Shown here: piece by piece, positions 9,001-52,390 of the stretch | Layout of the letters: each line of letters starts with the position of its first letter | How positions within the stretch are numbered: position 1 is the stretch's first letter | The notes under the pieces: generated by a model | Told to the model about the DNA's origin: nothing | What the model saw: only the letters and a program-made list of their open reading frames with translations | The model's database searches: none | Origin: Streptosporangium album | GTDB taxonomy: Bacteria > Actinomycetota > Actinomycetes > Streptosporangiales > Streptosporangiaceae | DNA: 64,000 bases | Assembly: GCF_014203795.1 (NCBI RefSeq) | Contig: NZ_JACHJU010000008.1 | Span: forward strand, 1-64,000 | Direction of reading: 5' to 3' | Translations under genes and position numbers: made by a program

Positions 9001-10502
9001 TCGCCGGGACCTGGGGCAGCGGCGGCCAGGCGGCCTACGCCGCCGCCAACGCCGCCCTCGACGCGCTGGCCGGCCAGCGGCGGGCACGGGGACTGGTCGC
9101 GACCTCGGTGGCCTGGGGTGCTTGGGCCGGCGACGGCATGGTCGCCGACGACGGGGTCCAGGACTATCTGGCCAGGCGCGGCATCCGTGCCATGGAGCCA
9201 GGAGCCGCGGTGACCGCGCTGTGGCGGGCGGTCACGCACCAGGACGCGACCGTGGCGGTCGCGGACATCGCCTGGGAGCAGTTCGGCGCGACGTTCACGG
9301 CCGTACGGCACAGCGCCCTGCTCGGCGACCTGCCCGAGGTCCGGAGCCTCAGGCAGGCCCCTCAGGCGACGGAGACGTTCCTGGAGCGGCTGCGTGACCT
9401 CGGCGAGGAGCAGCAGCTCGAAACCTTGCGGAAGCTGGTGCGGCAGCATGTGGCCGTGGTCCTGGGCCACAGCGACGCATCGGCTGTCGATGTCGGCCGT
9501 GACTTCGCCGAGCTGGGCTTCGACTCGCTCATCACGACGGAACTGCGCAACAGCCTCGTCAAGGTGCTCCGGCTGGAGTTCTCGCCGGTGGTGGTCTTCG
9601 ACAACAACAACGTGGCCGGCCTCGCCAGGTGGCTGCGGGAGGAACTGTTCAAGCGGCCGGGCGGTCAGAGCCGTGCCAGCGACGACGGCGTCAGCACATT
9701 GTTCCGCGAAGCCGTCCGCTCCGGCAAGGTGACGGAGGCGTTCAACCTGCTCCACGCGGTGGCGCAGGTCCGGCCCAAGAGCGACGATCTCTCACACGTG
9801 CCCCGGCCGGTGACGCTGGCAGAGGGGCCGGGAGGGCCTCGCCTGATCTGCGTGAGCTCCTCCACCGTCGGAGCGGGCGTCCACCAGTACGCCCGGCTGG
9901 CCGCGCGGTTCCGCGGGGTCAGGCACGTCTCGGCGGTTCCCCTGCTCGGTTACGCGCCCGGCGAGAGCCTGCCCGCCACCGGCGACACGGCTCTCGCGAT
10001 CCTCACGGAGAGCATCCTGCGGGCCGCGGCGGGCGAGCCGTACGTGCTGGTCGGTCACTCGGCCGGTGGCAACCTCGCCCACGACGCGGCCGGGGTCCTG
10101 CAGCATGCGGAGAACCCGCCGGTGGCACTGGTCATGATGGACTCGTTCGACGCGCGCACGGTCGGGGACTCGCACGCTCTGACCGGCCAGGTCATGGCAC
10201 AGTTGCTGCTGACAGAGGCGGCGCTCGGCGACTTCACGAGCAATGAGCTGTCCGCGATGGCCCACTGGCACGCCATCGCCTCCGGCCTGAAGGCGGGAGA
10301 CATGACGGTGCCGGTGCTGTTCATGCAGTGCACGGAGCCCTTCGCCCCGGCCGAACCCGGGGCGGACTACTGGCGATCGACGCCGTTCGACCCCTCGCAC
10401 GCCGTGCGGACCGTGGCGGCGAACCACTTCTCGATGCTCACCGACCAAGTCGGGGAAACGGCGCGGATCATCGAGGACTGGCTCAGGGGATCTCGCGGTT
10501 GA
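3..10502 (+). CDS. Terminal modular type I PKS (5' end outside window): ACP / KS-AT-DH-KR-ACP / KS-AT-KR-ACP-TE
   Basis: Last polyketide synthase of the assembly line. The reading frame is open from the first bases, which encode the end of an ACP, so the gene starts left of the window. Two full modules follow, then a thioesterase that ends the protein. The first AT has GHSIGE and HAFH motifs (2259-2270), indicating malonyl-CoA. The second has GHSQGE and YASH (7323-7334), indicating methylmalonyl-CoA. The thioesterase has GHSAGG at 10053-10070 and a catalytic-type His in ANHFSM near 10425, so this protein should release the chain, by cyclisation or hydrolysis. Its 3' end overlaps the convergent ABC permease gene by 20 bp. 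The product must come after the megasynthase that starts at 17453, with other PKS proteins in between that are not in this window. Confidence 0.95.
156..5150 (+). other. PKS module (penultimate): KS-AT(malonyl)-DH-KR-ACP
   Basis: KS about 156-1420, with the active-site Cys in TACSSS at 669-671, HGTGT, and NIGHT. AT about 1725-2650 (Ser in GHSIGE at 1971; HAFH). DH about 2770-3560, with catalytic His at 2868 in the H-x3-G-x4-P motif and Asp in [12 protein letters not shown] about 4087-4640, with GGTGGLG, LDD (B-type), FSS and GQGNY. ACP about 4900-5130, with LGFDSL. No ER lies between DH and KR. Predicted output: malonyl extension reduced to a trans-type enoyl unit. Confidence 0.9.
5199..9650 (+). 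other. PKS module (last): KS-AT(methylmalonyl)-KR(A-type)-ACP
   Basis: KS about 5199-6467 with TACSSS. AT about 6766-7780 with GHSQGE and YASH. KR about 8605-9150: the LDD motif is absent (IGPANT instead) and a Trp lies eight residues before the catalytic Tyr ([10 protein letters not shown]), the A-type fingerprint. The residue three before the Tyr is Gln, not His, which fits A1 (no epimerisation). ACP about 9420-9650 with LGFDSL. There is no DH, so the product is an alpha-methyl-beta-hydroxy thioester, next to the TE. Confidence 0.87.
9830..10499 (+). other. Type I thioesterase domain
   Basis: Alpha/beta-hydrolase domain at the C-terminus of the terminal PKS. The nucleophile Ser is in GHSAGG (codon at 10059) and the proposed catalytic His is in AANHFSML (about 10425). 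It offloads the finished polyketide. The beta-hydroxyl made by the adjacent module is not the usual ring nucleophile, so a more distal hydroxyl or water would attack; which one cannot be read from sequence. Confidence 0.9.
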
Positions 10503-14355: not shown

Positions 14356-16113
14356 TCAGGATCCGGGAGGTACGAACTCCGTGTAGATCTCACGCGCTGA
14401 CTGCTGCCTGTCCTCCTGGGCGGATCGAAGGTCTGTGATCACGTACATGCGCTGCAGCCATCGATCCATTCCGTCGTATCGGGCCGTGAACGGAGCTCGG
14501 CCGTGTACCGCCCGCCGGTTGTCGACCACGAGCAGATCGCCCTCATCGAGATACGCGTACTTGAGGTGCTTCTCCGCGGCCTCCCTGGCGTCCCGCAGGG
14601 CTGTCCTCGCCTTCTCGTTCAGCCCTTCCATGAGGTCGGGATCGAAAATCATCAGCGGATCCCACGGATCGCCCGACAGCACGGGCAGCACCGGGCCGTT
14701 GCCCTTGCACTCGTCGCTGTTGCCGAACGAATAGTCGATGCCCGTCCGGAAATCCGCCGCGAACAGGGCGGCACGGGATCTCGGCGGCAGCTCGCCCAGC
14801 AGCATGCGGGTGCCGGAGACGAGAGTGGCCGCCTGCTTGTGGTGGTCGGGACGGATGCAGTAAAGCAGCAGGTAATCGGGCAGATAGGGGTGGAACGCGG
14901 TCTCCGTGTGCAGGTCCAAAAGGATCGTCGAGCTCTCCGAGGAGAGCCTTTCCGCATTGCCCGGCGTCGGGCACATGTTCTGGAACAGCTCCCCGTCCTT
15001 CTCCTGTGCGTAGGAGATCGGCTCTCCCAGAGCGCACCCCAGCACGGCGAGCCACAGTTCGCTGGCGAAAGTCCTCTTCTCCATCGACCGCCATGAGCTC
15101 GGCGGCGTGAGAGGCGTCTTCGGGTCCGGCGGCAGCCCGCGGATCAGGAGGGCGCCGAAATCGTTCGAGCGCCGGCGGAAGTCGATGATCGCGTTCCTGA
15201 CGGAGCGGGGCAGCTCGTGATAGATCAACTCCGCGTGGGTGAGGAACTCCTCCGGCTGCGCGTAGGGGTCGATGTCGAGCTTGGCCAGTGCCTCGGCCAG
15301 CCGGGGCACGTCACGCACGTCGACGACCGGCGCCCCCTCGATCTCCGTGAGGCGAGTCGGCGAGGTGGCCCGGGTGATGCCGGGGCTTCCCGCCGCCATG
15401 GCCTGCTCGACGGCATCCGCCTGGACGGCGGCGCCGTTCCCCGCCAACCACGAGAGCGTGCCGGCGAAGAGCCGGGCGTTGTCGTCGCAGCCCCAGAAGG
15501 GGAGGGCGAAGAGGTCGGAGTCACCGATCACCGCCACCCTGCCACGGCCGTGTTCGGCGACGGCGACGACGGTCTGTCCGTCTGGGCCGGACAGCAGGGG
15601 TACGGCGGCCGCCTCGAAGGTGTCGAGGGCGCTTCCGCCCCAGACGAGCACCTTCTCGACGCCCTCCAGGATCGGGTGCGGCCGAATCGGGGCGCAGGTG
15701 ACCCTGCGGGTGCTCAGGCGGTGGTCCGTGACCTGGATTCCGAACGGTTTCAGGAGGCCGTTGAGGTCGGCCGACGGGTGCCTGCCCGGTTCGTCGCCGA
15801 GGATGAGTGCCGCTCCGCCCTCGGATATCCACTCCCGGAACAGCTCGATCTCCGCTCCCGTGAACTCCTCGCGCGGGTGGGCGATGATGAGGACGTCGCA
15901 GGCCGGCAGAGTCTCCTGGCGCCACGACCGCGTGATGGCGTTCGCCGTGCTCCCGAACATGGCCAGCGTGAGGTCGGCCAGGTGCCCGTAGTAGGCCTGA
16001 TCCGGATTCTCCCGAGCCAGTTCCGCAGCACGTGCGGCGTCGATCGTCCAGCGTTCGCCGTGGGCCTCGTCGTATGCGAATGTGGGCACTCCGCGTCCCT
16101 TTCCGTAGGTCAT
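14356..16113 (-). CDS. Two-domain protein: N-terminal GATase/GIFT-like domain fused to clavaminate-synthase-like Fe(II)/2OG oxygenase
   Basis: A 585-residue protein. Residues about 320-580 match the clavaminate synthase/asparagine-oxygenase branch of the TauD superfamily. The iron ligands are probably His402 and Glu404 (HTETAFHPY) and His537 (DNRRAVHGR), with Arg545 or Arg551 for 2-oxoglutarate. Residues about 10-230 are a separate alpha/beta domain (AYDEAHGERW start, CDVLIIAHP, ISEGGAALILGDEPG, VAVIGDSD) resembling GIFT/DUF4350-type class I amidotransferase-like folds, without an obvious catalytic Cys. A single-domain oxygenase would be about 330 residues. The ATG overlaps the aminotransferase stop by four bases, indicating coupling. 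This oxygenase branch usually hydroxylates amino acids or their derivatives, so it may act on an aminated substrate made by the neighbour. The substrate is unknown. Confidence 0.8.
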   Translation of the reverse strand: MTYGKGRGVPTFAYDEAHGERWTIDAARAAELARENPDQAYYGHLADLTLAMFGSTANAITRSWRQETLPACDVLIIAHPREEFTGAEIELFREWISEGGAALILGDEPGRHPSADLNGLLKPFGIQVTDHRLSTRRVTCAPIRPHPILEGVEKVLVWGGSALDTFEAAAVPLLSGPDGQTVVAVAEHGRGRVAVIGDSDLFALPFWGCDDNARLFAGTLSWLAGNGAAVQADAVEQAMAAGSPGITRATSPTRLTEIEGAPVVDVRDVPRLAEALAKLDIDPYAQPEEFLTHAELIYHELPRSVRNAIIDFRRRSNDFGALLIRGLPPDPKTPLTPPSSWRSMEKRTFASELWLAVLGCALGEPISYAQEKDGELFQNMCPTPGNAERLSSESSTILLDLHTETAFHPYLPDYLLLYCIRPDHHKQAATLVSGTRMLLGELPPRSRAALFAADFRTGIDYSFGNSDECKGNGPVLPVLSGDPWDPLMIFDPDLMEGLNEKARTALRDAREAAEKHLKYAYLDEGDLLVVDNRRAVHGRAPFTARYDGMDRWLQRMYVITDLRSAQEDRQQSAREIYTEFVPPGS

Positions 16114-17192
16114 ATCCGGGTACGCAGCGTCGCCCGACCGTCCGCGTAGAACTCGCGGATCTTGCCGATCACGAAGTCCTGGTCCGATTCGGACAGCGCC
16201 GGGTCGGTGGGAAGATAGAGGCCATCGGCCGCGTAGCGGGCGGCGTTCAGCGACGTCCAGCCGGGGTCGAAGTACATCGGCTGGCGGCTCATGGGCTGGA
16301 AGAACACTCGGGTCTCGATGCCCGAGTCCGCCAGGAACTCCCGCAGCTCCTCCCGCCGCTCCGCCCGGATGTCGTACATCCACAGGACGTCGCGCGGCGG
16401 CATGAGGGTGATCCCGTCTATGCCGTCGAGCCCCTGGTCGTAGTGGCTCTCGATGCGCTTGCGGATATCGAGGATCTCCTCGATCCGCTCCAGTTGGGCC
16501 AGGGCGACCGCAGCCTGCATATTCGTCATGCGGAAGTTGTAGGCCAGTTTCTTGTGGATGAAGTTGTGTTCCTTGGTGAAGGCCATGCCGCGCAGGTGGG
16601 TCATCTGCCGGGCCAGCCGCTCGCTGTCGGTGACGCAGACGCCGCCCTCGCCGGCAGTGATGATCTTGTTGGCGTACAGCGAGAAGCACGCCACGTCGCC
16701 GACCGGGCGCACGCCGATCGCCTCCGCGGAGTCCTCGACCACGCGCAGGTTGTACTCGTAGGCCACGTTCATGATCGCGTCCATGTCGCACCGCCGGCCG
16801 TAGACGTGCACCGGCATGATGGCCTTGGTCCGCGGCGTGATCTTCTCCTCGATCAGCGACACGTCGATGTTGAGGTCGTCGGCGCAGTCCACGAACACCG
16901 GCACCGCACCCGTGTAGCTGACCGCCCAGGCCGTGGCGACCATGGTGAACTCCGGCACCAGGACCTCGTCGCCTGGGCCGACTCCCAGGGCGCGCAGCGC
17001 GAGGGTGAGCGCGGTCGTGCCGGAGGAGCACGCGACGCCGTACGAGAAGCCGTTGTACTGAGCGAACTCCTCCTCGAATCGTCCGACGAAAGGGCCCTGC
17101 GAGGATATCCAGCCGGAATCGACGGCCTCGTTGAGGTACTGCAGTTCCCGTCCGGTGAGGTACGGCTTCGACACGTGATATTTGAACGCCAT
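16110..17192 (-). CDS. DegT/DnrJ/EryC1/StrS-family PLP aminotransferase (perosamine synthetase-like)
   Basis: A 360-residue pyridoxal-phosphate enzyme. The Schiff-base Lys is Lys176 in YANKIITAGEGG, Asp154 in VEDSAEAIG contacts the pyridine nitrogen, and the phosphate-binding segment is SSGTTAL near 56-62. The family aminates keto-sugars, most often nucleotide-4-keto-6-deoxyhexoses, and this sequence most resembles perosamine-type 4-aminotransferases. No glycosyltransferase or nucleotide-sugar gene is seen here, so it may aminate the polyketide or work with genes outside the window. I chose ATG 17192 because GAGGGA lies five bases upstream; a GTG at 17204 is an alternative. First gene of a two-gene operon, divergent from the megasynthase. 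Confidence 0.88.
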   Translation of the reverse strand: MAFKYHVSKPYLTGRELQYLNEAVDSGWISSQGPFVGRFEEEFAQYNGFSYGVACSSGTTALTLALRALGVGPGDEVLVPEFTMVATAWAVSYTGAVPVFVDCADDLNIDVSLIEEKITPRTKAIMPVHVYGRRCDMDAIMNVAYEYNLRVVEDSAEAIGVRPVGDVACFSLYANKIITAGEGGVCVTDSERLARQMTHLRGMAFTKEHNFIHKKLAYNFRMTNMQAAVALAQLERIEEILDIRKRIESHYDQGLDGIDGITLMPPRDVLWMYDIRAERREELREFLADSGIETRVFFQPMSRQPMYFDPGWTSLNAARYAADGLYLPTDPALSESDQDFVIGKIREFYADGRATLRTRI

Positions 17193-17452
17193 TGTTTCCC
17201 TCACTCATAAGCCGTTCGGCTCGTCGGCACAGGGCGGGAAAGGATGCGCGCCGAACAGGCGCCGGGGCACGTATAGAAGAACCCGGACGGCACTCGTGAA
17301 ATCACTAGGAATCCAGGTCACCGACTCCGCGGCGCCGGACTACTAGTGAAACGCGCAGCGGGTGCTCGGCATAGTTTGTCGCGGCTGGGAGCGGGAGCCG
17401 CGCTATTCCCGTTTCCGCCTGGTGGCACGACAACGGCATTGGGGAGCGGCGC
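17193..17452. promoter_or_regulatory. Divergent promoter region upstream of the PKS megasynthase and aminotransferase
   Basis: A 260-bp gap between divergent genes. It contains the inverted second copy of the shared 17-bp motif (17292-17308) and a partial third copy in plus orientation (CTAGTGAAACGCG at 17343-17355). GGGGAG at 17441-17446 is the ribosome-binding site for the GTG at 17453. No convincing small gene was found. Confidence 0.6.
17292..17308 (-). promoter_or_regulatory. Candidate operator, copy 2
   Basis: Reads CTAGTGATTTCACGAGT on the minus strand, one mismatch from 12293-12309. The core GTGA-aa-TCAC is a perfect dyad with a two-base spacer. Position: 145 bp upstream of the megasynthase start and about 100 bp upstream of the aminotransferase start. 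Confidence 0.5.
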
Positions 17453-20400
17453 GTGAATCGGTCCGAGTTCACGAGTGACGACGCCATCGCGATCGTCGGA
17501 GTGTCCTGCCGGCTGCCCTCCGCGCCGGGACCGGCCGAGTTCTGGCGGTTGCTGCACGACGGCGTCAGCGCCGTGTCCACCGTGCCGCCCGGCCGCTGGG
17601 ACGCGGGCCAGGAGCCCGGACCCAGCGCATACGGCGCGTTCCTGGACGAGGTCGACCGGTTCGACGCCGCCTTCTTCGGGATCTCGCCCCGCGAGGCCCG
17701 CGCAATGGATCCCCAGCAGCGGCTGACGCTGGAACTCAGCTGGGAGGCCCTGGAGAACGCGCGCATCGCGCCCACCCGGGTCCGTGATGCCGACGTCGGC
17801 GTGTTCATCGGCGTGATGGCCGACGACTACGCCCTGCTGAGCCGCCAGGCCGGTACGGCGGGCATCGGCCGTCACTCGCTCACGGGCGTCAACCGCGGCA
17901 TCATCGCCAACCGCGTCTCGCACTTTCTCGCTCTGACCGGCCCGAGCGTGGCGGTGGACACCGGCCAGTCGTCGTCGCTGGTGGCGGTGCACCTGGCCTG
18001 CGAGAGCATCCGCAGCGGCGAGTCCAGCATGGCCCTCGCCGGCGGGGTCCAGCTCAACCTGGCCGTGGAAGGCGCCATGGCGCCCGCGGAGCTCGGCGCA
18101 CTCTCTCCCGACGGCAGGTGCTTCACCTTCGACGAGCGGGCCAACGGGTACGTCCGCGGCGAGGGCGGCGCCGTCGTGCTGCTCAAGCCGTTGTCGCGGG
18201 CCGTCGCGGACGGCGACCACGTCTACTGCGTCATCGCGGGCAGCGCGGTCAACAACGACGGCCCCGGCGACACGCTCACCACACCGAGCGCCCTTGCCCA
18301 GGAGCGCGTGCTGAGGTCGGCGTGCGGGCGCGCCGGCGTGGATCCGGCGAGCGTCGGTTACGTGGAGCTGCACGGAACCGGCACCAAGGTGGGCGACCCC
18401 ACGGAGGCCGCTGCCCTCGGCGCGGTCTACGGCGCGGAACGACCCCTGTGGGTGGGGTCGGCCAAGACCAACGTCGGCCACCTGGAGGGTGCCGCCGGGA
18501 TCGTCGGCCTGCTCAAGACCGTGCTGGCCGTCGAGCAGCGGGTGCTGCCGCCGAGCCTCAACTTCGAGCGGCCGAACCCCGCGATCCGCTTCGACGAGTG
18601 GAACCTGCGGGTGGTGCGGTCGGCGATGCCGTGGCCGGCCGGTGAGGGTGCCCCGATCGTGGCGGGCGTCTCGTCCTTCGGGCTCGGCGGTACCAACTGC
18701 CACGTCGTGCTGACCTCCGCTCCGGCGCCTGTTGCCGGGACCGCGTCCGCTGCACGCGAGAGTGGGTATTGGACGCTGTCCGGCCACACCGAGAGCGCGC
18801 TGCGAGCCCAGGCGGCCCGGCTGGCGAGCCACATCAGGGAACGCGCGGACCTGTCGATCGCCGACGTGGCCTTCTCACTGGCGACGACCCGGGCGGGCCT
18901 GCGTCATCGGGCGGTCGTCGTCGGGGACAGACGCGAGCAGCTGCTGCGCGGGCTCGACGCCTTGTCGGAGGGGCGCTCGGCACGCGGGGTGGTGCGCGGC
19001 GGGGAACGTCCCGGCGATCAGGTGTTCGTCTTCCCCGGCCAGGGATCGCAGTGGGCCGGGATGGGGGTGGAGCTGCTCGACTCGGCGCCGGTGTTCGCGG
19101 CCGCCATGGCGGAGTGCGAGGCGGCGCTGGCACCCTTCGTCGACTGGTCGCTGACGAGCGTCGTCCGCGGTGAACCCGGCAGCCCGCCCAGGGAACGCGC
19201 CGACGTGATCCAGCCCGTGCTGTGGGCGATCATGGTCTCGCTGGCGGCGTTGTGGCGGTCGTACGGCGTGTGGCCCGCCGCGGTCGTGGGGCACTCCCAG
19301 GGGGAGGTCGCCGCCGCATGCGTTGCGGGCGCGCTGTCACTCGAGGATGGGGCCCGGATCGTGACCGCCAGGTCCCGGCTGGTCACCGAGGTGCTCGCCG
19401 GCGCCGGCGGCATGGTCTCCGTGGGACTGCCCGCGGATGTCGTGAACGAGCGGCTGGCCCGCTGGGAGGGCCGGCTGTCCGTTGCGGTCGTCAACGGCCC
19501 GTCCTCCGTCGTCGTCTCGGGTGACGACGAGGCGCTGGCCGAGATGATGGCCGAACTGGCGGGCACGGCGCAGGTGCGGCGGATCAAGGTCGACTACGCC
19601 TCGCACTGTTCCATGGTCGAGCGGATCGAGGACCTGCTGGCGCCGATGCTGGCATCGATCCGGCCTCGCGGCTCGGAGATCCCCTTCTACTCGACGGTGA
19701 CCGGCGCGCTCCTGGACACGGCGGAGCTCGACGGTGATTACTGGTACCGCAACCTGCGCCGGCCGGTCGACTTCCAGGGCACGGTCGCGCGGATGCTGGC
19801 CGATGGGTTCGGCGTGTTCGTCGAGGTGAGCCCGCATCCGGTGCTGACCGGGAGCATCCAGGAAAGCGCGCAGGCCGCCGGGCGTCCGGCGGTGGCCGTC
19901 TGCACCAGTCGGAGGAACGCCGCCGGGATCTCCCGTGTGGTCACCTCTCTGGCCGAACTCCATGTCAACGGGGTGGAGGTCGGCTGGGAGAGGGTCGTTC
20001 CCGCCGCATCCCGGGTCGAGCTGCCGACATACGCGTTCCAGCGGGAGCGGTACCGGCTCGAAGAGCCCCGGCGCACGGAAGTGGGCTCGGCCGTTCTCAC
20101 CCCCGTTGTCGCGGGGCTCACTATGAGCCCGCAGGCGGTGGGCGACGGAAGGAGCGGTCCTGGCGACGATCTGCTCGCGGTGGTCCGTGACGCGTGCGCG
20201 ACCGTCCTCGGAACGGACGATCCCGACGCGGTCGAGCTCGGCCTGCCCTTCAAGGAGCTCGGTTTCGACTCCGCGATGCTCGTCGAGCTCACGACCAGGC
20301 TCAACGCGGCCGCCGGGCTGACGCTGACCGCGAACACCCTCTTCGACCACCCCACCCCGGCGAGACTCGCCGCCTTCCTGCGCTCCACACCCGGATCCCC

Positions 20401-21022
20401 GGAACCGGTGGAGTCCACTCCCACGGCCGACGAGCCCATCGCGATCATCGGGATGGCCTGCCGCTACCCCGGCGGGATCGACTCACCGGAAAGCCTGTGG
20501 CGGCTGGTCCACGCCGGGACGGACGCCGTGTCCACGATGCCATCCGACCGCGGCTGGCGGACCGCCGCCGTTCCCGGCGGCTTCCTCTACGATGCGGCCG
20601 ACTTCGACGCTGCGTTCTTCGGTATCTCGCCGCGTGAGGCGCTGGCGATGGACCCGCAGCAGCGGCTGGCGCTCGAAGTGTCCTGGGAGGCGGTGGAGCG
20701 GGCAGGAATCCTGCCTTCGACCCTGTACGGCACGCGGACCGGCGTCTACCTCGGCGCGATGGCGCAGGACTACGGCGCCCGGATGCACGAGGTGTCCGGC
20801 GACGCCGAGGGCTACACGCTGACCGGTACCTCGCCCAGCGTCCTGTCAGGCCGCGTCGCCTACACCCTGGGCCTGGAAGGTCCCGCGATCACGGTGGACA
20901 CCGCGTGCTCGTCGTCACTGGTCGGCATGCACCTGGCCGCGCAGGGACTGCGGTCGGGGGAGTGCTCGCTGGCGCTGGCGGGCGGTGTCACCGTCATGTC
21001 GACGCCCGGCATCTTCCTGTAG
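17453..21022 (+). CDS. PKS megasynthase, 5' part: loading module KSQ-AT-ACP and start of module 1 KS, ending at an in-frame TAG
   Basis: Start of the assembly line. GTG start with GGGGAG six bases upstream. Residues about 9-420 are a ketosynthase with Gln in place of the active-site Cys (VDTGQSSS, Gln codon 17966), a KSQ decarboxylase. The AT has GHSQGE and YASH, methylmalonyl type, so the starter is propionate. An ACP follows with LGFDSA. The next ketosynthase begins at about 20429 and is cut by TAG at 21020-21022, just after [13 protein letters not shown]. As a free 1189-residue product it would hold the Cys but not the catalytic His residues of that KS. The frame continues unchanged after the stop, so this is the first part of one very large gene. 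There is no N-terminal docking region, as expected for a loading protein. Confidence 0.9.
17477..20390 (+). other. PKS loading module: KSQ-AT(methylmalonyl)-ACP
   Basis: KSQ about 17477-18720 (Gln at 17966-17968; HGTGT and NVGHLE His residues kept). AT about 19018-20050 with YASH near 19597. ACP about 20165-20390. Established role of KSQ: decarboxylate the AT-loaded extender, here methylmalonyl, to give propionyl-ACP. Confidence 0.9.
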
Positions 21023-24000
21023 TTCGCCAAGCAGGGCGGCCTGTCCCCGGACGGGCGTTGTAAGGCGTTCTCCAACGCCGCCGACGGAACGGGATGGGCG
21101 GAGGGCGTCGGCGTCCTGCTCCTGGAACGGCTGTCGGACGCGCGCCGCCACGGGCACGAGGTGCTGGCCGTACTGCGTGGTTCCGCCGTCAACTCCGACG
21201 GGGCCTCCAACGGCCTGACCGCCCCCAGCGGCGCCTCCCAGAAGCGGGTGATCGGGCAGGCCCTGCGCAGCGCCGGCCTGACCCCGGCGGATGTGGACGT
21301 GGTCGAGGCGCACGGGACCGGCACCACCCTGGGCGATCCGATCGAGGCCCAGGCGGTGCTGGAGACGTACGGCCAGGACCGCGAGAGGCCGCTGCTGCTC
21401 GGGTCCATCAAGTCGAACATCGGTCACAGCCAGGCGGCCGCCGGTGTCGCGGGTGTGATCAAGATGGTGATGGCCATGCGGCAGGGGATCGTGCCGCGGA
21501 CGTTGCACGCCGGCGAGCGCACGTCCCGGGTCGACTGGTCGGCCGGCGCCGTGGAACTGGTGACCTCGCCGGTGGAATGGCCCGAGAGCGGTCGTCTGCG
21601 CCGGGCGGGTGTGTCGTCGTTCGGGATCGGCGGCACCAACGCGCACGTGATCATCGAGGACGTCCCGGCCCCTGAACCAGGGACGGCATCCGGCATGGTA
21701 CCGGCGGTTGTGCCGTGGGTGGTCTCCGCCAAGAGCGAGGCCGCGCTCGGCGCCCAGATCGAACGGCTGATGTCCTTCGAGACCGGGGCGGATCCGGCCG
21801 ATCTCGGATACTCGCTGCTGACGGCTCGCTCGGTATTCGCCCACCGGGCCGTCCTGCTGGCCACCGGCGACGGCGTGGTCGAGGCCGCACGTGGTGTGGC
21901 CGGTCCGCCCGGCGCGCTGGCGGTGCTGTTCGCGGGACAGGGTGCGCAGCGGATCGGGATGGGCCGCGACCTCGCCGCCCGGTTCCCGGTCTTCGCCCAC
22001 GCGCTCGACGACATTCTCACGCGGCTGCCCGAAGGCCTGAAGCAGGTGATGTACGGCGAGGATCCGGAGCTGTTGGACCGTACCGAGTTCGCCCAGCCGG
22101 CGCTCTTCGCGATCGAGGTCGCGCTCTTCCGCCTGATCGAGTCCTGGGGCGTGACGCCTGACCTGCTGCTGGGGCACTCGATCGGCGAGATCGCCGCCGC
22201 CCATGTGGCCGGTGTGCTCTCCCTGGCCGACGCCTGCACGCTGGTCGCGGCCCGTGGCCGCCTGATGCAGCGGCTGCCTGAGGGCGGGACGATGGTGTCC
22301 GTACAGGCCGGCGAGACTGAGGTCGAGCCGCTGCTGGAGAGCGGAGCCGTCATCGCCGCGGTGAACGGGCCGTCGTCCGTCGTGATCGCCGGGGACGAGG
22401 ACGCCGTCCTTGAGACCACCGCGCGCTTCGCCAAGTCCACCCGCCTGCGCGTGAGCCACGCTTTCCACTCGCCGCTGATGGAACCGATGCTCGCGGAGTT
22501 CAGGGAGATCGTCGAGGGGCTGATCTTCCACGAGCCGAGGACGCCGATCATCTCCACCGTGACCGGCGAGCCGGTCGACGCCGCGTACCTGTGCTCGCCG
22601 CAGTACTGGGTGGACCATGTCGTGCGTCCGGTGCGGTTCGCCGCGGCGGTGCGCGCCGCCGGAGCCGAGCTGTTCCTGGAGCTCGGTCCCGACGGCGGGC
22701 TCTCGGCCCTCGTCCATCAGAATCTCTCGGACGTCGCCGCCTTCCCGATCCTGCGCAGGGACCGAGGCGAGGAAGAGACTGCGCTCACCGCTGTCGCCCG
22801 GCTGCACGTGCACGGCGTGCCGGTGCGCTGGCAGGAACTGGTCCCGGCCGCGCGCCGCGTGGACCTGCCGACCTACGCCTTCCAGAGGGAGCGGTACTGG
22901 CCCAAGCTCTCGCAGGTCGCGGGCGACGTCACCGCCGCCGGGCTGGACCGGCCGCGTCACCCGCTGCTCGGCGCGGCCACGGAGTTGCCCGACACCGGCG
23001 GATTCCTGTTCACCGGCATGGTCTCGACCGCCGCGCATCCCTGGCTGGCCGATCATGTGGTGGCCGGTCAGGTGCTGCTCCCCGGCACGGCCTTCGTCGA
23101 ACTGGCGCTCGGGGCCGGTGACGAGGTCGGCTGCGGCCTGCTGGAGGAGCTCACGCTCACCTCCCCGCTCGTGCTGCCAGAGCGGGGAGGTGTCCAGGTG
23201 CGGGTGGCGCTCGGCGCCGACGCGGGCGGCAGCCGTACGGTCGGCGTGTACTCCCGTCCCGAGGGCGAGCCGGACGCGCCGTGGATCCAGCATGCCACCG
23301 GCGTGCTGTCGTCTGGTGTGCCGAGCGCCCAGGACGCCGGATGGTCCCACGCGGACGCCGTTCCGGTCGATCTCGACGGCTTCTACGAGCGGCGGGCGGA
23401 GGCGGGTTTCTCGTACGGCCCGGCGTTCCAGGGGGTGCGTGCCGCCTGGCGGACCGAGCGGGAGGTGTTCGCCGAGGTCGCCCTGCCGGAAGACGCCGAC
23501 GCCGGCTCCTACGGTCTGCATCCCGCGCTGCTCGATGCCGCGCTGCAGGTGGCATCCCTGGCCGGGCTCGACGAGGCTGGGCTGCTGCCGTTCGCCTGGA
23601 GCGGGGTGTCCCTGCACGCGTCCGGCGCGTCGGCGCTCCGGGTCCGGATGAGCTTGGCTGGTCAGGACACGATCACGCTGGTCGTGGCCGATGCGGGGGG
23701 CGTGGTCGCCTCGGTGCGCTCCCTCGCCTTCCGTGCGCCCAGCCGTACGGCACGCGCCGGCGGCGGGCCGCTGCTGCGGCTGGACTGGCAGCCCGCGGCG
23801 GCATCCGGGGAGCCTGCGGCCAGGCGGTGGTCGGTGCTCGGCCCGGACGAGTGGGGTCTGGCCGCTGCCCTGCGCGAGGCGGGGCACGCGGTGGAGACCG
23901 GTTCCGCTGCGGAGGTGACGCTCGTGCCGATGGCGATCCCCGCCGGGAACGACGTTCCGCTCGCCGTACGGTCGGCGACCTCGACGGTGCTGGCCCGGCT

Positions 24001-25320
24001 GCAGGAGGCAGGAAGCGGCGAGCGCATCGTCTTCGTGACCTCAGGGGCGATGGACACCGCGCCCGACCCGGTCGCGGCGGCGGTCTGGGGCCTCGTGCGT
24101 TCGGCGCAGGTGGAGAACCCGGGGCGGTTCGTCCTGCTGGACCTCGACCCCGATCACCTCGACGGCCGGACGCTGGCCGCGGCGCTCGACTCCGCGGAGC
24201 CGCAACTGGCGGTGCGCGACGGTCTGCTCAAGGTGCCGCGACTGATCAGAGCCGACGCCCCCGCTGCGGATGACGTCGCGACGACCTGGAGTGCCGATGG
24301 CACCGTGCTGGTCACCGGCGGCCTGAGCGGCCTCGGCGCGCTCGTCGCCCGCCACCTCGTCACCGAACACGGTGTACGCCACCTGACCTTGGCCGGTCGT
24401 CGCGGCCCGGACACCGAGGGCGCCGCTGACCTGGTGGCGGATCTGACCGACCTGGGCGCCGAGGTCATGGCCGTCACCTGCGACGTGTCCGACCGTGACG
24501 CCCTGGCCCGGCTGATCGCCGCGATCCCACCGGAGCACCCCCTCACCGGCGTGGTCCACGCCGCCGGAGTGATCGACGACGCCCCGGCCGAGACCCTGCC
24601 CCCGGAACGGATGGAAGCCGTACTCCGTCCCAAGGTGGACGGTGCCTGGCACCTGCACGAACTTACCCGCGACCTCGGCCTGACCGCGTTCGTGGTGTTC
24701 TCCTCGGTCTCCGCGATCCTCGGCAGCGGCGGCCAGGCGAGCTACACCGCCGCGAACGCCTTCCTCGACGCTCTCGTACGGCAGCGCGCCGCCCAGGGTC
24801 TGCCGGGCATGTCCATCGCGTGGGGTCCCTGGGCGCAGGACACGGGGATGACCAGCGCCCTCACCGACACGGACCTGCGCCGAATGGCCAGGTTCGGCCT
24901 GCGACCGCTCTCCGCAGATCAGGGACTCGCCTGGTTCGATGCCGCCCTGGTGAGCCCGGAACCGGTGCTGGTGGCAGCCCGGGTGGACCGGGCAGCGCTG
25001 CGGGCACAGCGCCGGGTCCCGGCGGTGTTGCGCGCGCTCGTCCCCGCGCCCATGCGCCAGGCGGCCGCCCCCGCTCCCAGCGAGTTCTCGGGAGAGGAAG
25101 CGTCCACGCTGGTGCTCGCGCAGGTGGCGGCCGTTCTGGGGCATGCCTCCGCGAACGCGATCTCGCCGGACCTGACCTTTCAGGACCTCGGCCTCGACTC
25201 CCTCACCTCGGTGGAGCTGCGCAATCGGCTGATCGAGGCAACAGGACTGCGCCTGCCCGCCACACTGGTGTTCGATCACCCGACCCCGGCGGCGGTGGCC
25301 CGCTTCATCCACGGCCGGTT
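20429..25320 (+). other. PKS module 1: KS(interrupted)-AT(malonyl)-DH-KR-ACP
   Basis: KS about 20429-21655: Cys at 20906-20908 before the TAG, HGTGT His at 21311 and NIGHS His at 21425 after it. AT about 21920-22890 with GHSIGE and HAFH. DH about 22950-23740 with His in [12 protein letters not shown] and Asp in [12 protein letters not shown] about 24297-24850 with GGLSGLG (slightly unusual), IDD (B-like), FSS and GQASY. ACP about 25100-25310 with LGLDSL. Predicted output: enoyl unit, if the KS is made intact. Confidence 0.85.
21020..21022 (+). other. In-frame TAG stop codon inside module 1 ketosynthase
   Basis: The codon between CTG and TTC in ATC-TTC-CTG-TAG-TTC-GCC-AAG. Other KS domains in this window have Asp, Glu or Gly here (FIDF, FIEF, FIGF), so GAG to TAG is a one-base change. 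Frame and family similarity are intact on both sides. Confidence 0.95.
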
Positions 25321-28300
25321 CGATGGCGTCGAGTCCGCGGCTCCCGTGCACGTCACGGCTCCTGTCACCGGAGACCCGATCGTCATCGTCGGCATGGCCT
25401 GCCGGTATCCGGGCGGCGTCACCTCACCGGAACAGCTCTGGGAGCTGGTCGCCGAGGGCAGGGACGCCATCTCCGGCTTCCCCGCCGACCGCGGTTGGGA
25501 ACTCCAGGACACCTCGTTCGCACGCGCAGGCGGATTCCTGTACGACGCGGCCGAATTCGACGCGCAGTTCTTCGGCATCTCACCCCGCGAGGCCCTCGCG
25601 ATCGACGCCCAGCAGCGGCTGCTGCTGGAGACCTCCTGGGAAGCCATCGAACGGGCGGGCATCGACCCGCTCTCCCTGAAGGGCAGCCCGACCGGTGTCT
25701 TCGCCGGGATGATGTACCACGACTACCCATCCACCGGGGACGTCGTCAACGGGACGACGGGCAGCATCACCTCCGGCCGTGTGTCGTACACGCTGGGCCT
25801 GGAGGGCCCGGCGGTGACCGTGGACACGGCGTGCTCGTCGTCGCTGGTGGCGCTGCATATGGCGGCCCAGGCGCTCCGCTCGGGGGAATGCTCGCTGGCG
25901 CTGGCGGGCGGTGTGACGGTGATGTCCACGCCGGACACCTTTGTCGGCTTCTCCCGCCAGGGCGGGCTGAGCTCTGACGGGCGATGCAAGGCGTTCTCCG
26001 ACAGCGCCGACGGCGTGGGCTGGTCGGAGGGCGTGGGCGTGCTCGTGCTGGAACGGCTGTCCGGCGCTCGGCGCAATGGTCACCAGGTGCTCGCGGTGGT
26101 CCGTGGCTCCGCGATCAACCAGGACGGCGCGTCCAACGGCCTGACGGCGCCGAACGGTCCGTCGCAGCAGCGGGTGATCCATCAGGCGCTGGCCGGTGCG
26201 GGACTGTCCCATACGGATGTCGACGTGGTCGAGGCCCATGGGACGGGGACCACCCTGGGCGACCCGATCGAGGCCCAGGCGCTGCTCGCCACCTACGGTC
26301 AGGACCGTGATCGTCCCCTGCTTCTGGGGTCCATCAAGTCGAACATCGGTCACACGCAGGCCGCTGCCGGTGTGGCCGGTGTGATCAAGATGGTCATGGC
26401 GATGCGCGAGGGTGTGGTGCCGCGCACGTTGCACGTGGACGCGCCGTCGTCGCACGTGGACTGGACCGAAGGCGCTGTCGAACTGGTGACGTCGCCGGTG
26501 GAGTGGCCGGAGGGCGATCGTCCGCGCCGCGCGGGCGTGTCGTCGTTCGGGATCAGCGGCACCAACGCCCACGTGATCATCGAGCAGGGGCCGTCGGTTG
26601 CCGCGGCTGAGGCCCCCGCGGGCGGGCCCGTCCCGTGGGTCGTGTCCGGCCGTACGGCAGGCGCGTTGCGAGCGCAGGCGGCGCGGTTGCTGTCGCACGT
26701 CGAGAGCTCGCCCGGCGTGGGATTGGCCGAGGTGGGACTGTCGCTGGCGACTGCTCGCTCGGCATTCGAACACCGCGCGGCCGTGGTGGGTGCTGATCGT
26801 GCGGAGATGGTGCTGGGGCTGGTCGCGCTGGCTGAGGACGGGCCGGCCGCGGGTGTGGTGACCGGATCGGCGGGAGGTCCGGCGAAGCTCGCGTTCCTGT
26901 TCACGGGCCAGGGGAGCCAGCGCGCGGGGATGGGCCGGGAGCTGTACGACCGCTTCCCGGTGTTCGCGGAGGCGATGGACGAGGTGAGTGCCGAGCTCGG
27001 CGCGTCGTTGTTCACCGAAACAGAGTTGCTGGATCAGACGGGGTGGGCGCAGCCGGCGTTGTTCGCGTTGGAGACGGCGCTGTTCCGGCTCGTCGAATCG
27101 TGGGGCGTGCGTCCGGATGTTCTGGCCGGGCACTCGATCGGGGAGATCACGGCAGCGCATGTGGCCGGGGTGCTGTCCCTGAAGGACGCGTGCACGTTGG
27201 TGGCGGCCCGGGCCCGGTTGATGCAGGCCCTTCCCCCTGGTGGGGCGATGGTGGCGGTGCAGGCCGGCGAGGAGGAGGTCGCCGGTCTGCTTTCCGGGCG
27301 TGAGGTGTCGGTCGCCGCGGTGAACGGCCCGGCCTCGACGGTGATCTCCGGGGTGGAGGACGCGGTGGTCGAGGTGGCCGCCGTTCTGGAGTCCCGCGGC
27401 GTACAGACCCGCCGGTTGCGGGTGTCGCACGCCTTCCACTCGCCGTTGATGGACCCGATGCTGAACGACTTCCGTGCCGTTGCGGAGACGCTGACCTACC
27501 ACCCGCCGCGGATCCCGATCGTGTCCACGCTGACCGGGCAGGTGGCCTCCGCGGAGGAGCTGTGCTCGCCGGACTACTGGGGGGACCAGGCCCGCCAGGC
27601 CGTACGGTTCGCCGACGCCGTTCGCGCCCTGCATGGTCTGGGCGTGCGGGCCTACCTGGAGCTCGGCCCCGATGGGGTGCTCACCGCGATGGCCGGAGAC
27701 ACGCTCGCCGACCCGGGCGCTTATGCGGTTCCGGCGCTGCGCAAGGGCCAGGACGAGCAGAAGACGATCATGACGGCGCTGGCCGGGCTGCACGTCCATG
27801 GGGTCCGGCTCGACTGGCATCCGGTGTTCCCCAGCACCAGGAAGGTGGAGTTGCCCACGTACGCCTTCCAGAAGGAGCGCTTCTGGCCGAGCGCCCGGCG
27901 CGGCGGGGACGCACGTGGGTTGGGGCTGGGATCGGTGCTCCACCCGCTACTCGGGGCAGTGGTGGCGTCGCCGGAGTCCGGTGGGGTGGTGCTGACCGGC
28001 CGGTTGTCGGCGTCGGCCCACCCGTGGATCGCCGATCACCGGATTCTGGGCCGGGTGCTGCTGCCCGGAACCGGGTTCGTCGAGCTGGTCGTCCGCGCGG
28101 GTGACGAGGTCGGCTGCGCGGTGGTCGAGGAACTGGCATTGCAGGCACCGCTGACCTTGCCCGACTCCGGTGGGGTTCAGGTCCAAGTGGTGGTCGACGG
28201 CGCCGACGAGTCCGGCAGGCGCGCGGTGCGCGTGTACTCGCGGGCGGACGAGCACGACGGCGGCGAATGGACGCTGCACGCGCAGGGTGTGCTCGTGGAG

Positions 28301-31300
28301 CGGGCGGCGGAGCCAGGCTTCGACCTCGTGCAGTGGCCGCCGGTGGGCGCGACCGAGCTCGACCTCGCGGGCGCCTACGAGCGGCTGGTCGAGGTCGGTT
28401 ACGGCTATGGACCCGCGTTCCGGGCCTTGCGTACGGCATGGCGCCGGGGAGAAGAGCTGTACGCCGAGGTCGTTCTGGATGAGCGGGCGGCTGCCGAGGC
28501 TGGACGGTTCGGGATGCACCCTGCCCTCTTGGACGCGGCGATGCACGTGTCGCTGTTCGACCCCTCCGGCGTTGCCGGTGGCGGGCGGGCGGTGCTGCCG
28601 TTCGTGTGGCGGCAGGTGGCCTTGCACGCGGCGGGTGCCTCGACGGTGCGCGTGCGGGTGCGGCATACAGGTGAGTACACGTTGACCTTGAACGTGGCCG
28701 ATGAGAACGGGCGTCCGGTGCTGTCGGCCGGGTCGATGGTGGGGCGTCCGGTGTCGGCGGAGCAGTTGGGCGGAGCGGGCGAGCGGTCCCTGTTCCGGGT
28801 GACGTGGAACCCGATCGAGCTGCCCGCTGCTGCCGACGAGGCCGGACCGGCTGAGCTGCTGGACTGCTCGGAGCGGCCCGCCGGTGACGTGCCGGACGTA
28901 GTGCGTTCCGTGGCCGGTGACGTACTGGAAGCGCTGCAGAGGTGGTTGGAGAGCTCGGCTTTGGGGCCCTTGGTGGTGGTGACCAGGGGTGCGGTGGCGG
29001 TTGGTCAGGGCGAGGGCGCCGATGTGGCGATCGCGCCGGTGTGGGGGTTGGTGCGCGCGGCGCAGGCCGAGCATCCGGGCCGGTTCGTGCTTCTGGACCT
29101 GGAGGAGGGACAGGACAGGGACGCGGCGGTGCGTACGGCCGTGGCAAGCGGTGAGCCGGAGCTCGCGGTGCGATCGGGGGCGTTCCTGGTGCCGCGGCTC
29201 GTCAGGATGGCCCAGCCCCGGGTCGGCGGTTCCGCCGCTGAGCCGTACCTGGACTCGACCGGGCAGCCTGGCGGCTTCATCGGGGCGGCCGCAGTGCCGT
29301 ACATCGGCTCACCGGAGGTGGCCGGGGGAACGGTGCTCGTGACGGGCGGTACCGGCGGGTTGGGGGCGTTGCTGGCTCGTCGCCTGGTGACCGATCACGG
29401 CGTGCGGTCGCTGCTGCTGGTGAGCCGGCGGGGACCGGCGGCCAAGGGGGCCAAGCGGCTGGTGGAGGAGCTGACCGCCCTCGGGGCCGAGGTCCGGGTG
29501 GTGGCCTGCGACGTCGCCGATCGGGAGTCACTGGCGCAGGTCGTGGGATCGGCGCCGCTGGTGGGCGTCGTCCATGCGGCGGGCGTGGCGGACAACGCGA
29601 TGGTGGAGTCGTTGTCTCCGGAACGGCTGGACGCGGTGCTGCGGCCGAAGGCGGACGCGGCATGGCACCTGCACGAGCTGACGCGAGATCTGCCGCTGGC
29701 GATGTTCGTCCTGGTGTCGTCGGCGGGTGGCCTGGTGCTGGCGGCGGGCCAGGGCAACTACGCGGCGGCCAATGTGTTCCTGGACGCGCTGGCGGCCCAT
29801 CGGCGGTCGTGCGGGCTGGTGGCGACGTCGCTGGCCTACGGGCTGTGGGATGTGGCCACCGGGATGAGCGCGGAGTTGTCCGATGCCGACCGTGATCGGC
29901 TGGCCCGGCTAGGACTGCCTGCGTTGTCCGCGGACGAGGGGAGGCGGCTGTTCGATCTGAGCCTGCGTGCGGACGAAGCGATGACGGTGCCGCTGCGGGT
30001 AGACGTTGAGGTACTGCGGAGCCGCGGCGAGCAGGTGCCTGCGTTGCTGCGAGGGCTGGTGCCCACGGCCAGGCGGGCGGTGCGCGCGGTCGCCGGCGGC
30101 GGCGATGAGGGTGGGTTCAGGCGGCGAGTGACCGGTCTGGACGAGGCCGAGCGCCATCGGGTGCTGGACGAGCTGGTACGACGGCATGTGGCGGCGGTGC
30201 TGGGGCACGCGTCCTTGGACGCGGTCGGTCCCGATCAGGCCTTCAGCAAGATGGGACTGGACTCACTGGCCGCGGTGGAACTCCGCAACCAACTGGCCGC
30301 CGCGACCGGGTTGTCGTTGCCGGCCACGATGGTCTTCGACTACCCGACGTCACGCAGCGTCGCGGATCTCCTGGCCGCTGAGCTCTCCGGGGCGGTGGAG
30401 TCCGAGCCGGTGGCGGAGCTGCCGGTGATGCGGTCGGTGGCGGATGATCCGGTCGTGATCGTGGGGATGGCGTGCCGGTATCCGGGTGGGGTGGTTTGTC
30501 CGGAGGATCTGTGGCGGTTGGTGATGGAGGGGACTGATGCGATCAGTGGGTTCCCGGTGAATCGGGGGTGGGATCTGGAGGGGATCTATGATCCGGATCC
30601 TGGTCGGGTGGGGACGTCGTATACGCGTCATGGTGGGTTTTTGCATGAGGCGGATGAGTTCGATGCGGGGTTCTTCGGGATTTCGCCGCGTGAGGCTTTG
30701 GCGGTTGATCCGCAGCAGCGGTTGTTGCTTGAGGTGTCGTGGGAGGCGGTGGAGCGGGCGGGGATCGAGCCGGGGTCGTTGCGCGGTAGCCGTACTGGCG
30801 TGTTCACCGGGGTGATGTACAACGACTACGGCCTGGCCTTGGGCAACGCGGCCGGTCGGCTGCACCAGGTCGCCGTCGGCGAGGTCGTCGAGGGGCTCGG
30901 CCAGCGTGACGCCGTCGAAGGCTACGAAGGCACCGGCACCGCACCGAGCGTGGCCTCCGGCCGGGTGTCGTACACGCTGGGGCTGGAGGGTCCGGCGGTG
31001 ACCGTGGACACCGCGTGCTCGTCGTCGCTGGTGGCGCTGCATCTGGCGGCGCAGGCGCTGCGCTCCGGAGACTGCTCGCTGGCGCTGGCGGGCGGAGCGA
31101 CCGTGATGTCCACGCCGAACACCTTCATCGGATTCGCGCGCCAGCGCGGGCTGTCCGTCGACGGCCGGTGCAAGTCGTTCTCCGACAGCGCCGACGGCGT
31201 GGGCTGGGCGGAGGGCGTCGGCGTGCTCGTCCTGGAACGGCTGTCGGACGCCCGGCGCAACGGCCACCAGGTGCTGGCCGTGCTGCGCGGCTCGGCGGTG

Positions 31301-52300: not shown

Positions 52301-52390
52301 CACGATTCCGGTGACGCGGACCTCGACCTCGACGCGGTCACGGACAGCGAGATGTTCGACATTCTCGACAACGAACTCGGCCTGTCGTGA
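21161..52390 (+). CDS. PKS megasynthase, 3' part: rest of module 1 through module 6 and C-terminal docking region
   Basis: Continuation of the frame that starts at 17453. It is open from 21023; 21161 (GTG) is only the first possible start after the TAG and has no convincing ribosome-binding site, and it lies in the middle of a KS. From here it encodes 10,409 residues: the end of KS1, then five complete modules (2-6). Every AT has GHSIGE plus HAFH, so all six extensions are malonyl. Modules 1, 2, 4, 5 and 6 are DH-KR; module 3 is DH-ER-KR. The last 70 residues form a helical docking region ending [15 protein letters not shown], so the chain passes to another PKS protein. Reconstructed with the 5' part, the protein would be about 11,645 residues. 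Predicted chain on the last ACP: pentadeca-2,4,6,10,12-pentaenoyl. Confidence 0.88.
25373..30370 (+). other. PKS module 2: KS-AT(malonyl)-DH-KR-ACP
   Basis: KS about 25373-26585, TACSSS. AT about 26885-27870, HAFH. DH about 27935-28760, His in [12 protein letters not shown] and Asp in [12 protein letters not shown] about 29326-29850: GGTGGLG, VSS, GQGNY intact, but the LDD motif reads ADN; no Trp before the Tyr, so it still resembles a B-type enzyme. ACP about 30150-30370 with MGLDSL. Predicted enoyl unit. Confidence 0.87.
26336..26593 (+). repeat. Direct repeat, copy in module 2 KS C-terminal part
   Basis: 258 bp nearly identical to 31526-31783 in module 3 (one difference seen, GCT/GCC near 26477). 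Covers NIGHT through [10 protein letters not shown]. Confidence 0.85.
30441..30829 (+). repeat. Long direct repeat, copy in module 3 KS
   Basis: 389 bp identical to 42012-42400 except for one base (30619 G versus 42190 A). Covers the first third of the KS. Codons here are richer in T and G third positions than in the surrounding KS. Confidence 0.9.
31526..31783 (+). repeat. Direct repeat, copy in module 3 KS C-terminal part
   Basis: Partner of 26336-26593, 5,190 bp downstream of it. Confidence 0.85.
31912..32166 (+). repeat. Direct repeat, copy in module 3 KS-AT linker
   Basis: 255 bp nearly identical to 43375-43629 in module 5, with about four differences. Covers the linker and the first residues of the AT. 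Confidence 0.85.
36761..41970 (+). other. PKS module 4: KS-AT(malonyl)-DH-KR-ACP
   Basis: KS about 36761-38030, TACSSS, starting [18 protein letters not shown] about 38370-39380, [12 protein letters not shown] about 39440-40270, His in [12 protein letters not shown], Asp in [12 protein letters not shown] about 40900-41450, with LAD in place of LDD (the key second Asp kept), FSS, GQANY. ACP about 41740-41960. Predicted enoyl unit. Confidence 0.88.
42012..42400 (+). repeat. Long direct repeat, copy in module 5 KS
   Basis: Partner of 30441-30829, 11,571 bp away; one mismatch in 389 bp. The repeat ends abruptly just after VMYNDY, where the two KS sequences diverge in length and composition. Confidence 0.9.
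42014..47080 (+). other. PKS module 5: KS-AT(malonyl)-DH-KR-ACP
   Basis: KS about 42014-43300, TACSSS. AT about 43600-44620, HAFH. DH about 44690-45500, His in [12 protein letters not shown], Asp in [12 protein letters not shown] about 46040-46590, LDD, FSS, GQANY. ACP about 46850-47070 with MGFDSL. Predicted enoyl unit. Confidence 0.88.
43375..43629 (+). repeat. Direct repeat, copy in module 5 KS-AT linker
   Basis: Partner of 31912-32166, 11,463 bp away. Confidence 0.85.
47123..52387 (+). other. PKS module 6: KS-AT(malonyl)-DH-KR-ACP plus C-terminal docking region
   Basis: KS about 47123-48385, TACSSS. AT about 48700-49690, HAFH. DH about 49755-50560: the conserved HPWLADH reads QPWLADH, but the catalytic His ([12 protein letters not shown]) is kept. 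KR about 51095-51650, LDD, FSS, GQGNY. ACP about 51930-52140 with LGFDSL. From about 52180 a helical stretch ([13 protein letters not shown]) and an acidic tail form the docking element. Confidence 0.88.

What the first reader, a model, noticed from the sequence alone, without database searches (positions are those of the whole stretch)
21020..21022. A single in-frame TAG splits an otherwise intact megasynthase gene inside a ketosynthase
Frame, codon usage and KS similarity are continuous from 17453 to 52390 except for this codon. It sits where other KS domains here have Asp, Glu or Gly, so GAG to TAG is one base. The Cys of this KS is upstream and both catalytic His residues are downstream, so neither half could make a working KS alone. 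The downstream half has no credible start: the first possible one is GTG 21161, without a ribosome-binding site. Either the pathway is dead at module 1, the base is an assembly error, or the stop is read through.
Basis: seen in the sequence. Interest (0 to 1): 0.8.

Follow-up and report, generated by a model that had tools for sequence, protein, structure and literature searches.

The report
Fresh stop codon in polyketide gene
A very large antibiotic-type assembly-line gene carries one out-of-place stop codon that four intact relatives lack, so the pathway is most likely recently broken (or the base was misread), with no sign that the stop is part of a normal mechanism.

Summary
TAG at 21020-21022 is the only stop in a frame from GTG 17453 to 52390 (KSQ loading module plus six extension modules). 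It lies in the KS of module 1, between the catalytic Cys and both His. The four orthologues found (one same-genus, three Acrocarpospora) have GAG there and stay open; in 59 other aligned KS domains the codon begins with G. Sequence on both sides is constrained like intact PKS genes, and no second stop occurs in 11,644 sense codons, so the stop, if real, is very young. A scan of 1.78 Mb (20%) of the assembly at 72% sensitivity found one other interior stop, a TAG in a gene that is also truncated, so true gene decay does occur here. Read-through lacks support: no CUA anticodon among 62 tRNA matches, no PylS above cut-off, intact release factor 1, TAG ending 179 of 803 long ORFs, ordinary RNA folding, stop not conserved. 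Re-initiation could not restore the KS. Best reading: a recent lineage-specific nonsense mutation disabling the assembly line at module 1. A single-base consensus error is the main rival and cannot be excluded without reads.

The parts
21020..21022 (+). in-frame TAG, codon 1190, inside the ketosynthase of module 1
   Evidence: orthologues have GAG
17453..21022 (+). translated 5' part: KSQ-AT-ACP loading module plus the first ~180 residues of the KS1 region (1189 aa); GTG start with GGAG upstream
21023..52390 (+). open frame after the stop: rest of KS1, remainder of module 1 and modules 2-6; the last ~70 residues look like a docking tail by eye
   Evidence: first 3659 residues scanned; motifs over the whole
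20432..21142 (+). KS1 N-terminal domain (PF00109), the only one of 39 PF00109 matches in the genome with a stop inside
20906..20908 (+). catalytic Cys codon of KS1 (upstream of the stop)
   Evidence: motif positions
21311..21427 (+). span holding the two catalytic His codons of KS1 (HGTGT, NIGH), downstream of the stop
   Evidence: motif positions
21161..21163 (+). first in-frame start codon (GTG) after the stop, no Shine-Dalgarno match
17480..18202 (+). KSQ of the loading module (Gln in place of Cys: DTGQSSS)
3..10502 (+). PKS ORF of the same cluster without internal stop, two modules ending in a thioesterase; open at the contig start
10483..12345 (-). two-gene ABC transporter (ABC2_membrane, ABC_tran/DrrA-like); this stretch is conserved beside the cluster in three Acrocarpospora
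14356..17208 (-). 950-aa ORF with GIFT/DUF4350-like and TauD domains, upstream of and divergent from the PKS gene

Best explanation
A recent, lineage-specific GAG to TAG nonsense mutation has cut the first gene of a giant modular type I polyketide synthase. Ribosomes end at codon 1190 with release factor 1 and release a 1189-residue fragment (KSQ-AT-ACP plus the first part of KS1). The remaining 31 kb of message is not translated, so modules 1-6 are missing and no full-length polyketide can be made. Shown here: the stop, its absence from four orthologues, the otherwise open gene, and the lack of decay. Inferred: that the base is real, that termination is efficient, and that the product is lost.
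For: All four orthologues found have GAG and an open frame (59 of 341 family genomes stayed unscored). dN/dS between window and the same-genus orthologue is 0.27 before the stop (1185 codons), 0.22 after it (3719 codons) and 0.31 in the C-terminal tail (2244 codons); a gene without stops in the same cluster gives 0.285 (9254 codons). Against Acrocarpospora it is 0.28-0.31 for residues 1-1009, 0.17-0.24 for 1010-1189 and 0.33-0.35 for 1191-1880; pairs of the intact orthologues give 0.325-0.442 for the last stretch. Zero further stops in 11,644 sense codons bounds the neutral age at d below about 0.0036-0.0039. Genuine gene decay exists in this genome: the only other interior stop in the lesion scan, C1:4141231 TAG, stands where three homologues have TGG, in a gene whose C-terminal end is also missing. 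TAG is the likeliest nonsense outcome in this ORF (1755 of 2495 possible single-change stops). RF1 is intact; TAG ends 179 of 803 long ORFs.
Against: No reads, transcripts, proteins or metabolites were available. A very young nonsense mutation leaves the same trace as a single wrong consensus base, so absence of decay does not favour one over the other. In residues 1436-1880 dN/dS against Acrocarpospora is 0.37-0.41, slightly above the intact pairs (0.29-0.39); homology weakens at the end of that stretch, so I do not read it as decay. The tools hold one genome per species, so no second strain could be checked.
Confidence: 0.62

Rival explanations
1. The T is a single-base consensus error in the assembly; the strain carries a sense codon (GAG as in relatives) and the synthase is intact.
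For: The gene is open and constrained in every other respect and the orthologues found have GAG. The contig set breaks inside PKS repeats (window starts at base 1 of contig C8; about 3 kb seems to be missing between C4 and C8 by synteny), so assembly here was difficult. In Mycobacterium smegmatis 28 of 73 resequenced interrupted genes were sequencing errors (PMC1852416, abstract and one results section read), although those were not miscalls.
Against: In 1.78 Mb at 72% sensitivity only one other interior stop was seen, in a gene that is also truncated and so need not be an error. The other PKS genes show open frames of up to 9269 codons without internal stops in their KS. The site is not a homopolymer, and the nearest other DNA in the assembly is 78% identical, so a collapsed repeat is an unlikely donor of the T.
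Confidence: 0.3
2. The TAG is read through, by a suppressor tRNA or by leaky termination, so that some full-length 1.2 MDa synthase is made.
For: The frame after the stop is still constrained, which would also be expected of a read-through gene. One own-genome tRNA-like gene with an 8-nt anticodon loop (CTCTTAGA, C2:441856-441928) could in one register present UUA, which could read UAG by wobble; this is untested. A second interior TAG exists at C1:4141231.
Against: The stop is absent from the four orthologues found. None of 62 tRNA-family matches has a CUA anticodon; a very divergent tRNA could be missed. PylS is only a sub-cut-off match (21.5 of 178 bits); RF1 is intact. TAG ends 179 of 803 long ORFs, so general suppression would be costly. 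The second interior TAG replaces Trp, not Glu, and lies in a truncated gene. Folding around the stop is ordinary (z -0.10 and -0.98). The base after the stop is U, reported to reduce read-through in E. coli, though the paper finds the effect mainly for UAA (PMC5289835, abstract and start of the introduction read).
Confidence: 0.05
3. The gene has become two working genes: the 1189-aa loading protein and a separately started downstream synthase.
For: The 1189-aa piece holds a complete KSQ-AT-ACP loading module. PKS gene borders do vary between relatives: the first open frame ends after module 1 in Acrocarpospora.
Against: The cut lies inside KS1, between Cys and His. The first in-frame start, GTG 21161, has no Shine-Dalgarno match, and every later start lacks the Cys half. 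The sequence at the cut still aligns with the intact KS of relatives, with no linker.
Confidence: 0.02

Closest known systems
Saccharopolyspora erythraea Px: nonsense (Q86*) and frameshift mutations in its pfa polyketide cluster (PMC3359211, passages read)
   Same: point loss-of-function mutations in a PKS cluster of an actinomycete
   Different: found in an industrially improved strain by comparison with NRRL 2338; the nonsense there is in a small ACP gene, not inside a KS of a megasynthase, and the cluster carries several mutations
Streptomyces venezuelae ATCC 21113 cmlI one-base deletion (PMC7357120, passages read)
   Same: a one-base lesion in one strain silences a biosynthetic cluster that relatives keep
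   Different: frameshift in a tailoring gene; confirmed by Sanger sequencing and by production tests
Interrupted coding sequences of Mycobacterium smegmatis (PMC1852416, abstract and one results section read)
   Same: apparently broken actinobacterial genes for which mutation and sequencing error must be separated
   Different: the paper reports no miscalls among its 28 errors, because of the program used
Orthologous KSQ-type PKS genes in a same-genus genome (G312) and three Acrocarpospora species (L039-L041)
   Same: same loading module and module 1, 80-84% DNA identity in the main blocks, the ABC-transporter stretch also conserved in Acrocarpospora
   Different: GAG in place of TAG; gene borders downstream of module 1 differ

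Membership tests
nonsense pseudogene (recently broken gene) | premature in-frame stop absent from orthologues | tested here: met
   the four orthologues found have GAG and open frames
nonsense pseudogene (recently broken gene) | loss of an essential part of the protein | tested here: met
   cut between catalytic Cys and His of KS1; about 90% of the protein lies after the stop
nonsense pseudogene (recently broken gene) | stop present in the organism's DNA, not a consensus error | not testable with these tools
   no reads available; the lesion scan shows such stops are rare in this assembly
nonsense pseudogene (recently broken gene) | further decay or relaxed selection | tested here: not met
   no second stop; dN/dS not clearly changed. 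Expected to be absent if the stop is recent
stop-codon read-through or recoded gene | stop conserved in orthologues | tested here: not met
stop-codon read-through or recoded gene | decoding machinery for UAG (CUA-anticodon tRNA or pyrrolysine system) | tested here: not met
   one 8-nt-loop tRNA-like gene of unknown decoding remains
stop-codon read-through or recoded gene | structured RNA signal next to the stop | tested here: not met
   z -0.10 and -0.98
KSQ-loading modular type I PKS | KSQ-AT-ACP loading module followed by KS-AT-(DH)-(ER)-KR-ACP modules | tested here: met
   DTGQSSS in the first KS, seven ACP motifs, six DTACSSS KS (KS1 interrupted by the TAG)

The most novel reading that the evidence does not exclude
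The TAG is real and is partly decoded, so that a 1.2 MDa polyketide synthase is made at low level by amber read-through, perhaps with the 8-nt-loop tRNA-like gene of the same genome as decoder.
Probability: 0.03. Interest if true: 0.75.

Novelty: new member of a known kind. Interest (0 to 1): 0.2.

Why it matters
It shows that an apparently complete giant PKS cluster may be silent for a trivial reason, which matters for anyone mining this genome: product prediction or expression of the cluster would fail as sequenced, while the orthologous genes in the same-genus genome and in Acrocarpospora are open. If the base is an error, automated annotation will wrongly split one gene into two. If read-through were shown, it would be a surprising way to make a megasynthase, but nothing here points to that.

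Tried and rejected
Amber suppression: all 62 tRNA-family matches of the own genome were covered, 61 by ARAGORN and one by eye; none has a CUA anticodon. Pyrrolysine: only a sub-cut-off match. RNA read-through structure: ordinary folding. Collapsed-repeat misassembly as donor of the T: nearest other DNA is 78% identical. Split-gene reading: cut inside the KS, no plausible start. Long-dead pseudogene: no decay.

Lesion scan: one search flagged 32 stops. I read the other 31 in translation by eye, ten and 21, without a database check except where named. Thirty look like gene ends followed by a new start, or like non-coding or antisense frames. One, C1:4141231 TAG, is a real interior stop: homologues in G303, G311 and G308 have TGG there, and the own gene lacks the last ~120 residues that they have (no Pfam family). 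I left the odds as they were, since a second, clearly decayed gene helps the mutation reading slightly and a second TAG helps read-through slightly.

Analyses that failed and were replaced: codon-only lesion scan (missed the TAG itself); hexamer scan with too strict thresholds (printed nothing, ten candidates, sensitivity 543 of 3273), replaced; a first codon alignment that went wrong after about residue 1280, replaced; a translation in the wrong frame. The KS-position count aligned 29 of the 30 type I PKS KS of own contigs C4, C6, C8 and C10 (C10:15049 was missed by the motif) and 31 KS of the fetched G312 stretch, where the motif also missed some. In one search, 74 of 341 family genomes were not scored, the 15 same-genus genomes among them; one search repeated the search for the genus (16 genomes), so 59 stayed unscored. 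A further G312 hit of 80% (C1:7361712) was not examined. KS rows shown all read 'none' for internal stops, but those lists are cut to the best rows, so they give no full base rate. Absence of frameshifts in other PKS genes was judged from open-frame lengths only; no frameshift scan was run.

Literature: in the listings of searches I saw no title or abstract start that reports read-through or recoding inside a modular PKS; full texts were not checked beyond the passages named.

Full report
What was checked. The window is bases 1-64000 of contig C8 of a 9,022,456-bp, 14-contig genome. TAG at 21020-21022 is codon 1190 of the frame that starts at GTG 17453 (GGAG with a 6-base spacing). Apart from this codon the frame is open to 52390. 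By motifs it encodes KSQ-AT-ACP followed by six extension modules, with seven ACPs and six Cys-type KS. The stop falls in the KS of module 1, after the Cys (20906-20908) and before both His (21311 and 21425). Of 39 PF00109 matches in the genome it is the only one with an internal stop.

Orthologues. A protein scan of GTDB contigs found three Acrocarpospora genes at 78-80% amino-acid identity over the best segments. Searches of the family and genus found the same three at 84% DNA identity and a further orthologue in the single-contig same-genus genome G312 (83% and 80% in two blocks). All four have GAG at the homologous codon and the frame is open (3108-3123 codons in Acrocarpospora, 7228 in G312). 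Of 341 family genomes, 59 stayed unscored. Across 59 other aligned KS (28 own, 31 of G312) the codon always begins with G: Asp 23, Glu 18, Gly 14, Ala 4.

Is the gene decaying? Against G312, dN/dS is 0.27 for residues 1-1189, 0.22 for 1191-4930 and 0.31 for the C-terminal tail; a gene without stops on contig C4 of the same cluster gives 0.285. Against Acrocarpospora, values are 0.28-0.31 for the loading module, 0.17-0.24 for KS1 before the stop and 0.33-0.35 for 1191-1880; pairs of the intact orthologues give 0.325-0.442 there. In the sub-stretch 1436-1880 the window pairs (0.37-0.41) are slightly above the intact pairs (0.29-0.39). About 2.2-2.4% of single-base changes in this ORF would create a stop, so zero further stops in 11,644 sense codons bounds the neutral age of the lesion at about 0.0036-0.0039 substitutions per site, against pairwise dS of roughly 0.23-0.54 by segment. 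The lesion is thus either very young or not real. These tests cannot separate the two.

Assembly quality and other lesions. I scanned 1,784,126 bp of the same assembly (about 20%) for stops flanked by coding sequence in the same frame. Sensitivity at simulated positions was 2358 of 3273. Thirty-two sites were flagged, and all were looked at in translation. Thirty look like ordinary gene ends or non-coding frames. Besides the window's TAG, one is a real interior stop: C1:4141231 TAG, where homologues in three same-genus genomes have TGG; the own gene also lacks its C-terminal end, so it is a decayed gene. TAG is the likeliest nonsense outcome for this codon usage (1755 of 2495 single-change stops in the PKS ORF), so two TAGs are no surprise. 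Interior stops are thus rare here but do occur as real decay. The other PKS genes are open over up to 9269 codons. That the assembly used long reads is a guess from its contiguity.

Read-through. RF00005 gives 62 matches; ARAGORN assigns ordinary anticodons to 60 of them. One, C2:432020, is a 3' tRNA fragment like tRNA-Met. The other, C2:441856, has an 8-nt anticodon loop CTCTTAGA. No CUA anticodon was found. PylS is below cut-off, RF1 is intact. Of 803 long ORFs 179 end in TAG, 38 of them followed by T as here. RNA folding near the stop is ordinary. With the stop absent from the orthologues found, programmed read-through has no support.

Re-initiation. The first in-frame start is GTG 21161 without a Shine-Dalgarno match; GTG 21356 (GAGG, spacing 8) is the best placed of the early ones. 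Any such product lacks the Cys half of KS1.

Cluster context. C4 (reverse) and C8 line up with PKS genes spanning about 194 kb in G312 (6485708-6679680), with about 3 kb apparently missing between them; this rests on best matches among similar modules. The two ends of the window's 11,645-codon ORF correspond to two G312 frames (7228 and 4998 codons), and co-linearity with Acrocarpospora stops near 23092 in module 1. So PKS recombination has altered this gene downstream, but not at the stop.

Conclusion. Most likely a recent nonsense mutation that stops the assembly line at module 1 (0.62); next, a consensus base error (0.30); read-through (0.05) and a functional split (0.02) are unlikely. Broken biosynthetic genes are a known kind: nonsense and frameshift mutations in the pfa cluster of S. 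erythraea Px (PMC3359211, passages) and a one-base deletion in cmlI of S. venezuelae ATCC 21113 (PMC7357120, passages) are precedents.

Noticed in passing
own genome C2:441850-441928 (-), loci L127, L255; homologues L256 (G305), L257 (G306): A tRNA-like gene with an 8-nt anticodon loop (CTCTTAGA). Close homologues in two same-genus genomes have nearly the same body but different loops (CTCGTCATT, CTCTTTCT, CTCGGGA). In G305 and G306 it follows a 450-493 aa gene (60% identical to each other) without a family above cut-off in Pfam or NCBIfam; the own genome has a 236-aa copy that matches in separate blocks, as if internally deleted.
   Followed up: partly
own genome C1:4141231 (-), loci L219:383-1645, L281: A second in-frame TAG, where homologues in G303, G311 and G308 have TGG, in a gene that also lacks its C-terminal ~120 residues: a decayed gene with no Pfam family.
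   Followed up: yes
own genome C2:421889-432096 (L164, L127): A tRNA-Met gene followed at about 5.4 and 10.1 kb by copies of its 3' half, which looks like tandem integrative elements with duplicated attachment sites.
   Followed up: no
window 1 and own contig C4:1: Contigs C4 (reverse) and C8 appear to be one PKS cluster broken by a gap of about 3 kb, by synteny with G312 C1:6480001-6680000.
   Followed up: partly
window 17453-52390: The ends of this one 11,645-codon PKS ORF correspond to two frames in G312 (7228 and 4998 codons), and in Acrocarpospora the first frame ends after module 1; synteny with Acrocarpospora stops near 23092.
   Followed up: partly
window 14356-17208 (-): A 950-aa ORF combines a GIFT/DUF4350-like region with a TauD dioxygenase domain, an unexpected pairing next to the PKS gene.
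   Followed up: no
window 12911-14281 (-): A 456-aa ORF with no Pfam family at E 0.001, between the ABC transporter and the TauD ORF.
   Followed up: no
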